Source of the DNA: Phanerodontia chrysosporium
Taxonomy: Eukaryota > Basidiomycota > Agaricomycetes > Polyporales > Phanerochaetaceae
Assembly: GCA_001910725.1 (NCBI GenBank)
Contig: MJGA01000004.1
Span: 372,001 to 436,000 of the forward strand
Direction of reading: 5' to 3'
Length of the DNA stretch: 64,000 nucleotides
Shown: positions 296 through 62,198 of the stretch, piece by piece
Numbering within the stretch: the first letter of the stretch is position 1
Layout: each line of letters begins with the position of its first letter
The notes under the pieces: model-generated
Database searches by the model: none
What the model was told of the DNA's origin: nothing
What the model saw: only the letters and a program-made list of their open reading frames with translations
Position numbers and translations under genes: made by a program

Positions 296-1518
296 CTATA
301 TCGGCTGGTCAGGGTCTGCCGACTTTGACACCGCCTTGTCCGTCTTCTTCTCATCCTCTTTCTTCTTCTCCTTGCTGTTCTTCTCCTTCTCCTTCGCGTC
401 CTTGCCCTTGCCCTCCTCGAGCTCAGCCTTACCCAACGACGCCTTGTTGTCGACGAGCGCGTGCAGGGCAATGACGGCGCGGAGGAGACTGCTGAGGTAC
501 ACGACGAGCAGCTCGTCGTTTGTCGTCGACGCAAAACTCGCCGTCGTCTCGGGGTCGTTCAAGTTCGGGAGCAGGTTCAGCGCGTCCTGCAGGTGGTACA
601 GGATCTGGTGGTTCACGGGCATGCGACCCGCTCCGACGTCGACGAGGTATTTCTGGATGTCGGAGATGCGTGACTGCAGACCGCGCAGCGACGCGAGTTG
701 CTCTGATACGCGTGTTGACAGCGTCGTCGTCGTCGAGTCCTTGATGTCGCGCAGCAGGTGCTCGACACCAATCTCCTCTGCTTCTTCGGCTTCGATCGCG
801 GACGGAACGTGCAGGAACGTCTTGCGCGTCTCTGTACCATCCTAAAGAGCCAGTCAATACACGCCCTCAGTCATGCGTTGAGACACAAGACTCACGTCCT
901 TGATCTCCTCGACGGCAAAGTATGCGTCTGTGGGGATGCCGACAGTGTGTGGTCGTACGTCGACGATGACCATGACGGGCCGTGCAATATACCGCTTGAG
1001 AAGGTCGTTGATCTCTTGGTCTGAGGCTCGCAGCTTAGGCCCGTATGGTACCACCCAATCATCTTCTCCCGAGCTAGACGCAACGCAACTCAGCCGGGCT
1101 AGGGACGGACGGAGGAGCGGACTTACCTACCGTTGACCTTTTTGAACATCTCCCACATGCCCTCGATGTAGTTATGGTCCAGGAACCATGTCTTCGGGTC
1201 CTTCTCGTCCTCCTCGAAGGGGATACCGAAAGAGTTGGCGACGTTGATCGTCTTGCCATTGTCCTGGCCGAGCAGAACACCGATTACTCGCTTCGACGAG
1301 CCCTTGGGCACTGAGCGTGCATGGTGATCCGCTACTGAGAGTAGCACAAGGGGTGGACAACTGATTGTTGCTCGTAAGCATAGGGTATGATTTATGACGC
1401 GTAGAGCGTACCGACTGTTGTACTGGCAAGTGCAGTGAGCTATAGGGTGTCGGAAGTGAGTCCATTAGGTATAAAATAGTCGTCCAGTGCTCACCTGCTC
1501 CGTAGTCGTCGCTACCAT
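296..1518 (-). CDS. RPN8: 26S proteasome regulatory subunit Rpn8 (PSMD7), MPN- family
   Basis: Rpn8 is a proteasome lid subunit with an inactive MPN domain that pairs with the deubiquitinase Rpn11. Five exons fit: 1518-1495, 1439-1412, 1360-1131, 1073-896 and 841-296. Family motifs seen are VHPLVLLSVADHH, RVIGVLLGQ, FLDHNYIE, GWYHTG/PKL and a long C-terminal helix region (QYLVDV-like, NHQILYHLQD). The protein ends in a Lys/Glu-rich tail, usual for fungal Rpn8. The start at 1518 gives a short N-terminus reading into STTVVVHP. Two frame breaks are needed: one base is missing in the G run at 1350-1353 (between VHP and LVLL) and one at 1040-1042 (between YHTG and PKL). Exon phases close only if both are restored. 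An alternative acceptor before 1370 keeps frame but loses the conserved VVVHP. Rpn8 is essential, so sequence error is likelier than a pseudogene. Confidence 0.93.
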
Positions 1519-2050
1519 CGTTCAATACGTATCGGTTTGTGGGACGGAAAGAGGGACGAACGGAGGGGATGGAGTGTAATGAAGATGCGTGCGCACCGCG
1601 TACGCGTCCTTGTCGTCAAATAGGCGCCTATACCCTTATTGGGCTTATGTCGGCGGACGACATATGTACGGCACGCGTTCACATACGCAGGCATCCTCCG
1701 TCAGGACATGTCGCTCGAACGAGATTACTCAAGTCAAGTTACACTATGGTTCACCAACAGATGAAGTGCGGTATCTATAACGAAGTACGTATTATAAGAT
1801 CTTCTGCCGCGCTGCGCTCAAGAGTTTCACCGCGGCTTTATATCTACACGACGAGTGGAATATGAAACTGGGATCGGTCCGCGATAACCTTTTGTACAAG
1901 TCCGATCAGCGAATTCGCATGTCTTGCGAGAAAGCTTGCACCTAGACCCAGACCTAGCAGCACCTTGGGTATCTTCCGAGACGGCTCTGACATCAACGCA
2001 AGTTCGTCTTCGACGAAGATGTCAGCATCCTAGCCGGCACTTTCGAACAT
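1519..2050. other. intergenic, no gene recognised
   Basis: This stretch is upstream of RPN8 and downstream of the F-box gene's stop. It should hold the RPN8 promoter and the 3' end of the F-box transcript. I see only short overlapping open frames without motifs or codon bias and no RNA gene. Confidence 0.5.
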
Positions 2051-60714: not shown

Positions 60715-61241
60715 GGTGCACCATTCTTCTGAAAGATCGGCGCTACATTCGGCCTGCCTGTGTCAGTCTCACCATCCGTAGAAGACAAGTTATACCTCGT
60801 GTCCGTATTATATGCTTGGTAATAAAACGTTGTTACACTTTGCATAGATTGTTTGTGGTGTCAATAGATCGCCACACTCAGCAGGAGGTCTGTAGTGAGA
60901 TGGAGCAATTTCTACTACGTCGCTAGTAATAACATGGATGATCTGCTACACACTGGAGGGATACAGCAGCTGTTCTGATAGGACAGATGCGAATGCTCAT
61001 TGCACAGTAATCGTCGACATCGAGTGGAAGTCCGCATTGGTTGCAAGGGCGGTGGAGACCATGGGTTGAACAAGCTAGGTATCAGGGGTCCTCAGTGCAC
61101 GAGTGTCAAGATCTCGCGCGCTTATTGACTTCCAACACCGTGCTCAACTCTTCCACGGCCTTAGCTCTAACCCGTACAAACTGTGATTTTTTGTATCTCG
61201 CAAAGTATCATATATGGGACATGTCTACTCTACGCAACGAG
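60715..61241. other. spacer between the two APH-fold genes
   Basis: This 527 bp interval should carry the terminator of copy 1 and the promoter of copy 2. No gene recognised. Confidence 0.45.
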
Positions 61242-62198
61242 ATGACTCAAAAAATGCGAGGCTGAGCGAAGTGAGTGCACCCCGTGATCCGCGCTGTGGC
61301 GTACATACTTACGGATACACGTCGCCGCAAGTTTCCGGATAGTAGACTGTGGATCGGGTGGTCGTTTCTACGTGGCCTTCACGGCGTTATACATCGCCGA
61401 ATATTGATACCTCTATCCATCTGGTACTGTCGCTGGCGAGGGCTGCCCAGTCCCGACCCCAGCATCTTCCCGCTTCCTTTCAATCTCATTCTCAAGAATG
61501 GCGACGGGGTGCGGATAGAGGAGGCGTACGCAATGACCGCCGCACGCATGATTGGTCTTCCAGTGCCGCGTCTTGTGGCCTACGGAAGTCCAGGCGGCGG
61601 GCTGCCTTGGGGTTCTATCCTCATGACGCGCATCCCAGGCACCACCCTCGACGAAGTCCGCCATTCTCTCAGCGAAGCTCAGCTCGTCACGATCAAGGAG
61701 GAACTGGCGGGCATCCTCGCACGTATGAGGGCTTACGATAACCCGTGGGGGCAGCGCATATGCTCAGTCATCGGCACTTCGCTGGCGGGCGCCGCGCTCC
61801 CTGGCGGGTCGTTGGACCCCTGTGAGGATGAAAGCGAGTTCCACAATCGCTTCATCACTATCGGAATCGGCTGCAAGGAGCTCTGGGGCGATCCTGACGC
61901 CTATGAGCAGGCTCTCGCCACCGCACGCCAGATCCTTTCCCTACCCCACAGGACCACATTCACCCATGGCGATCTCTTGGAACACAACATCATGGTGTCG
62001 GACGGACACATCACCGGTATCATCGACTGGGAATGTGCGGGCTGGCTGCCCGAGCATTGGGAGTACGCCAGCGCAGTCAGGTGTCGACGCATGTACACCT
62101 GGTGGGGGAACTTCATCCTCTCATTACCTGGATATCGATATTCGCAAGAGCTGGAATGTGAAACAGCGAAGGCTCATCTCACGAGATGGTCGTTTTAG
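61242..62198 (+). CDS. Aminoglycoside phosphotransferase (APH)-fold kinase-like protein, copy 2
   Basis: This is a tandem paralogue of the gene at 59744-60714 with the same two-exon plan. Exon 2 (61332-62198) is fully open: PDSRLWIGWSFLRGLHGVIH, VRIEEAYAMTAARMIGLPVPRLV, GSILMTRIPGTTL, DPCEDESEFHNRFITIGIG, THGDLLEHNIMVSDG and GIIDWECAGWLPEHWEYASA. Exon 1 (61242-61270) starts MTQKMRG and then needs one extra base at the GG 61260-61261 to reach LSE and the donor in phase 0; read as it stands it stops at once. Differences from copy 1 are mostly conservative, so both may be functional. Confidence 0.82.

What the first reader, a model, noticed from the sequence alone, without database searches (positions are those of the whole stretch)
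296..61261. About 27 single-base losses, mainly in G/C runs, break frames across the window
Conserved proteins jump frame at 1040-1042, 1350-1353, 3714-3718, 8929-8930, 11195-11196, 15839-15842, about 21320, 22859-22864, 26752-26755, 27486-27487, 27530-27532, 28713-28714, 30072-30073, about 30500 and 30685, 36427-36432, 36484-36489, 37109-37110, 39471-39475, about 40934, 44828-44830, 45135-45140, 49364-49366, 55427-55429, 55605-55606, 58701-58702 and 61260-61261. Nearly all look like one missing base, mostly G or C. Exon phases close only after adding it. Essential genes are hit. This is best read as systematic homopolymer error in the assembly; a biological cause would be extraordinary.
Basis: partly seen in the sequence, partly recalled or inferred. 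Interest (0 to 1): 0.75.

Follow-up and report, generated by a model that had tools for sequence, protein, structure and literature searches.

The report
Single-base assembly errors breaking fungal genes
Many genes in this stretch of a probable wood-rotting fungus look broken because the genome assembly has very likely dropped single letters, so this is an ordinary data error and not new biology.

Summary
The window is bases 372001-436000 of a 2.4-Mb contig in a 39-Mb, 145-contig fungal assembly. I re-tested the 27 listed sites with an aligner that allows both GT..AG introns and frame jumps. 13 of 27 are frame changes with homologue or paralogue support. 6 are likely, 4 undecidable, and 4 are wrong: three ordinary introns (about 30500, 30685, 58701) and one site beside a start codon (15839). 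One more jump, 37367, was not listed. The 26.6-27.9 kb gene needs three jumps yet is 399/408 identical to metagenome protein P0123. At least 4 jumps hit conserved HSP70 and CCT genes on 4 contigs. Two of three near-identical copy pairs differ by more gaps than substitutions (21:17, 39:10; the third 1:3); two older pairs show the usual excess of substitutions (4:58, 9:153). Gaps, and mismatches too, bunch in patches or at a contig end. No mRNA-strand preference beyond run supply was found, and none of 13 tested sites has a slippery heptamer. Best reading: patchy consensus error, not a biological feature. No reads were available to prove it.

The parts
322..1518 (-). Rpn8 (26S proteasome subunit) gene with two frame jumps, at 1349 and 1044
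   Evidence: 4 of 4 fungal references agree; Pfam JAB and MitMem_reg lie in different frames
11046..11914 (-). SF3B2 splicing-factor gene (part aligned), one jump at 11198
   Evidence: Human SF3B2 fragment aligned
26597..27941 (+). Gene of unknown function with three jumps at 26777, 27496, 27528
   Evidence: P0123, 399/408 identical residues, 2 introns, 3 jumps
28412..30920 (-). NACHT gene, jumps at 30062 and 28704-28713; frame changes near 30685 and 30500 are introns
   Evidence: Six of 29 homologues aligned
36378..39873 (-). PLP decarboxylase copy with frame changes at 39475, 37367 (unlisted), 37097 and 36478
   Evidence: Open reading frames of the 31.3-34.9 kb paralogue used as references
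44679..45614 (-). NAPE-PLD-like gene, jump at 45143; 44828 unresolved
   Evidence: Human NAPE-PLD fragment aligned
49176..49843 (-). Aromatic aminotransferase C-terminal part, one jump needed between 49366 and 49327
   Evidence: 4je5 fragment, 70/190 identical; likely only
55499..56316 (+). Type II NADH dehydrogenase (part aligned), jump at 55601
   Evidence: Yeast Ndi1 fragment aligned

Best explanation
The frame jumps are consensus errors of the assembly. In poorly corrected patches single bases were dropped, most often from short G or C runs, so one exon falls into two reading frames; in the living fungus the genes are read normally. Shown: the jumps, relatives without them, jumps on other contigs, and gaps outnumbering substitutions in two of three near-identical copy pairs. 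Inferred: that the cause is thin or uncorrected consensus; the sequencing method is unknown to me.
For: 13 of 27 sites confirmed. A gene with three jumps is 399/408 identical to P0123. At least 4 jumps in HSP70/CCT genes on 4 contigs. Gap:mismatch 21:17 (C19/C70) and 39:10 (C15/C62) against 4:58 and 9:153 in older pairs. 15 of 21 C19 gaps lie in the last 1.6 kb of that contig, 26 of 39 C15 gaps in 1.0 kb. In C15, 16 of 20 one-base losses are C on one contig strand. No mRNA-strand preference beyond run supply.
Against: C62/C108 differ by 1 gap and 3 mismatches, so not every stretch is affected, or those two share reads. Mismatches bunch with the gaps (10 of 17 in the C19 end, 8 of 10 in the C15 patch), so which copy is wrong is not shown. 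G/C runs of five or more are only mildly scarce (52 seen, 77.8 expected). The window seems worse than other genes though it is interior to its contig, and no read depth is known. Window stretches searched have no second near-identical copy.
Confidence: 0.95

Rival explanations
1. Collapse of two differing nuclei or haplotypes into one mosaic consensus created false indels; a different route to an assembly artefact.
For: Documented for Trypanosoma brucei (PMC8445201, passages). The assembly holds near-identical duplicated contig stretches.
Against: Differences between near-identical copies are gaps more than substitutions in two of three pairs; true allelic differences would be mostly substitutions, as in the older pairs.
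Confidence: 0.03
2. The bases are really missing: a local wave of mutations or pseudogenes.
For: The sequence as given; NACHT and F-box genes do decay in fungi (recalled).
Against: Rpn8, SF3B2, HSP70 and CCT genes, essential in model fungi (recalled), are hit; the 26.6-27.9 kb gene is 98% identical to P0123 apart from its jumps.
Confidence: 0.01
3. RNA-level rescue: bases inserted into nuclear mRNA, or programmed frameshifting.
For: Most confirmed jumps have the same direction (one base short), and 10 of 14 run-assigned sites are C on the mRNA strand.
Against: Exon run supply predicts 65% C (p 0.78; 55% and p 0.28 if runs of two count) and the contig strand splits 7:7. No slippery heptamer at 13 of 13 tested sites. 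Gaps also separate copies of repeat stretches.
Confidence: 0.004

Closest known systems
Gene-fragmenting indel errors in long-read assemblies (PMC12007338, passages; PMC8812927, search listing and abstract start)
   Same: False single-base deletions, mostly at runs of two to eight bases, that split genes
   Different: In the assembly analysed in PMC12007338 A/T runs led; here G/C runs lead by my reading. The technology used here is unknown
False frameshifts from collapsed haplotypes (PMC8445201, passages)
   Same: Apparent frameshifts made by the assembly
   Different: There allelic differences were the cause; here near-identical copies differ chiefly by gaps
Nucleotide-insertion editing of Physarum mitochondrial RNA (PMC5192504, search listing and abstract start)
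   Same: Bases absent from DNA would have to appear in mRNA
   Different: That is mitochondrial and affects about 4% of mRNA residues; no result here points to RNA-level change

Membership tests
Assembly consensus indel error | Relatives or second copies lack the frame jump | tested here: met
   P0123, four Rpn8 references, decarboxylase paralogue
Assembly consensus indel error | Gap differences between near-identical copies exceed or rival substitutions | tested here: met
   Met in two of three pairs (21:17, 39:10); C62/C108 is 1:3
Assembly consensus indel error | Not confined to one gene or contig | tested here: met
   Four jumps on C72, C74, C80 and C91
Assembly consensus indel error | Accurate reads disagree with the consensus | not testable with these tools
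   No reads held
Homopolymer error | Lost base lies in a run of the same base | tested here: inconclusive
   By eye 17 of 23 at a run (14 G or C, 1 G/C, 2 A), 6 not placeable; runs short
Programmed -1 frameshifting | Slippery X XXY YYZ heptamer at the site | tested here: not met
   0 of 13 sites tested
mRNA insertion editing | mRNA holds bases absent from DNA | not testable with these tools
   No transcripts held; indirect strand test shows no excess

The most novel reading that the evidence does not exclude
The shorter sequences are real and the fungus restores the frame of nuclear mRNAs by adding single bases during or after transcription.
Probability: 0.004. Interest if true: 0.95.

Novelty: not a real feature. 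Interest (0 to 1): 0.06.

Why it matters
Gene counts, pseudogene calls and family losses taken from this assembly would be unreliable: at least about one frame jump per 5 kb in the conserved genes sampled elsewhere, and more in the window genes examined. It is a caution about the data. The same test, comparing gaps with substitutions between near-identical contig stretches, needs no reads and can flag other assemblies.

Tried and rejected
A strong loss of long homopolymers was looked for and found only weakly (52 G/C runs of five or more against 77.8 expected; similar ratios in other loci). The first sites read seemed to lose C on the mRNA strand; with 14 sites the split is 10:4 and matches exon run supply. 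A second copy of the window was sought with three 20-kb searches (bases 40001-44000 not searched): only diverged relatives and tRNA matches came back. Naming the strain by paper searches failed. A 5.8S rRNA search found nothing, with 39 of 1307 candidates scored. In the first 5 kb of two 10-kb pieces beside the window the Pfam matches showed no clear jump: an alpha-isopropylmalate synthase and a kinase in one, one partial MFS match in the other. Decarboxylase pieces compared in the reverse direction call jumps in the 31-35 kb copy too (34600, 34581, 34471, 32369, 31478, 31471); I read these as mirror images of the 36-40 kb jumps or shadow-frame matches and did not count them, nor a call at 39575. 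At a lower jump penalty the NADH dehydrogenase alignment calls two more jumps in a poorly matched stretch and NAPE-PLD two more; not counted.

Limits of the counts: the 23-site and 14-site run tables were read by eye and include sites rated only likely (49364, 8929, 22859, 44828, 55427). The C72 HSP70 and both CCT jumps were read by eye with family sequence that I recall. Codon totals (3,916 window; 3,168 HSP70 in 6 genes; 3,964 CCT in 9 genes) were summed by hand from alignment and table rows; HSP70-like rows on C105, C57 and C71 and in the repeats on C15, C62 (near 450-455 kb), C87 and C108, and one CCT-like row at C69:536613, were dropped. CCT genes were only partly read, so 4 is a lower bound. 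Window genes were chosen largely because flagged. One search used an earlier window total of 3,546.

Full report
The window. It lies at 372001-436000 of contig C80 (2.4 Mb) in a 39.0-Mb, 145-contig assembly. The two best-scoring named Rpn8 relatives are Trametopsis cervina and Hermanssonia centrifuga, with Irpex lacteus close, and the best NACHT relative is from Phanerochaete sordida (48% identity). From recalled taxonomy that points to the phlebioid Polyporales, wood-decay fungi; the species was not identified. Genes seen include Rpn8, SF3B2, eIF4A, a dual-specificity phosphatase, a GH20 hexosaminidase, a NACHT protein, two tandem PLP decarboxylases, a NAPE-PLD-like protein, an aminotransferase, a type II NADH dehydrogenase, an abhydrolase and two APH kinases.

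Checking the 27 sites. I wrote a protein-to-DNA aligner that allows GT..AG introns (cost 13, less a donor bonus) and frame jumps (cost about 17), so an intron is preferred where one is possible. Turning jumps off lowers the score from 1400 to 1338 for Rpn8, 2067 to 1790 for the P0123 gene and 1621 to 1417 for NACHT.

Likely, 6. The aminotransferase needs a jump, but its reference is weak (70/190 identical) and places it at 49327, not 49364. 55427 lies outside the Ndi1 fragment and rests on family sequence that I recall. At 44828 a stretch like the AGDTGY of NAPE-PLD is interrupted, but the aligner prefers an intron. For 8929 the two frames joined with X give an F-box match that spans the jump (E 0.09) while the pieces alone give none, and for 22859 the joined frames give an MFS match that spans it (E 0.006; pieces not tried alone); both are under Pfam's cut-off. 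3714 was judged by eye; the F-box match there does not reach the jump. Cannot tell, 4: 21320, 36427, 40934, 61260. Not borne out, 4: 30685 and about 30500 are introns, 58701 is a 50-nt intron, and 15839 is beside an ATG at 15844 that opens the phosphatase frame. One jump, 37367, is not in the list.

Controls. Of 20 HSP70 alignments printed (4 of them against a gene's own piece), two show a jump, at the same site, with different references. The abhydrolase aligns without a jump. eIF4A in the window matches human eIF4A over 253 codons in one stop-free frame (not run through the aligner).

Beyond the window. Four jumps were seen in conserved genes elsewhere: HSP70 on C72 near 74075 (table and eye) and on C80 near 1648210, CCT6 on C91 and CCT2 on C74 (by eye). 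The table rows cover about 7,100 codons, giving at least one jump per 5.3 kb; in the window genes examined it is 15 in 3,916 codons, one per 0.8 kb (p 0.00014; 0.02 if the window denominator is doubled), but those genes were largely chosen because flagged.

Copies. Three near-identical pairs: C19/C70 (7.9 kb) 21 gap events, 20 of one base, and 17 mismatches; C15/C62 (8.0 kb) 39 and 10; C62/C108 (8.0 kb) 1 and 3. Two older pairs: C105/C57 4 and 58; C62/C87 9 and 153. In C19, 15 of 21 gaps and 10 of 17 mismatches lie in the last 1.6 kb of the contig; in C15, 26 of 39 gaps lie between 16430 and 17426 and so do 8 of 10 mismatches. In C15, 16 of 20 one-base losses are C on one contig strand. Longest open frames around the C19 gaps differ between the two copies on both strands, so which copy is intact there was not settled. 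Patches rich in one-base gaps are what an uncorrected consensus leaves; older copies show the natural balance.

Tests for biology. Of 14 jumps assigned by eye to a G or C run, 10 are C and 4 are G on the mRNA strand. Aligned exons hold 183 C and 97 G runs of three or more, so 65% C is expected (p 0.78; with runs of two or more 55%, p 0.28); on the contig strand the split is 7 to 7. None of 13 sites tested has a slippery heptamer nearby.

Literature. PMC12007338 (passages): in one long-read assembly most errors were indels, most of those false deletions, at runs of two to eight bases, A/T leading. PMC8812927 (search listing): homopolymer-length errors are the commonest residue in long-read-only bacterial assemblies. 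PMC8445201 (passages): false indels from collapsed haplotypes. One search on frameshifting in basidiomycete genomes returned no paper, which says little.

Verdict. Patchy assembly error, mostly at short G/C runs where it can be placed. Reads would settle it.

Noticed in passing
   Followed up: yes
26597-27941: A metagenome protein, P0123, is 399/408 identical to this gene, so the same or a very close species is in a public metagenome.
   Followed up: partly
31346-34894 and 36378-39873: Tandem PLP decarboxylase paralogues on the - strand.
   Followed up: partly
59821-60711 and 61329-62201: Two APH-type kinase genes 76% identical over 291 residues.
   Followed up: no
57923-57994: tRNA-Met gene with at least six further 100% identical matches in the genome.
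   Followed up: no
L032, L033, L034, L035: An 8-kb stretch with HSP70-like fragments is near-identical on C62, C108 and C15 and about 5 kb of it is 96% identical on C87.
   Followed up: partly
L034 (C15:16430-17426): A 1-kb patch holds 26 of 39 gaps against C62; over the 8 kb, 16 of 20 one-base losses are C on the contig + strand.
   Followed up: yes
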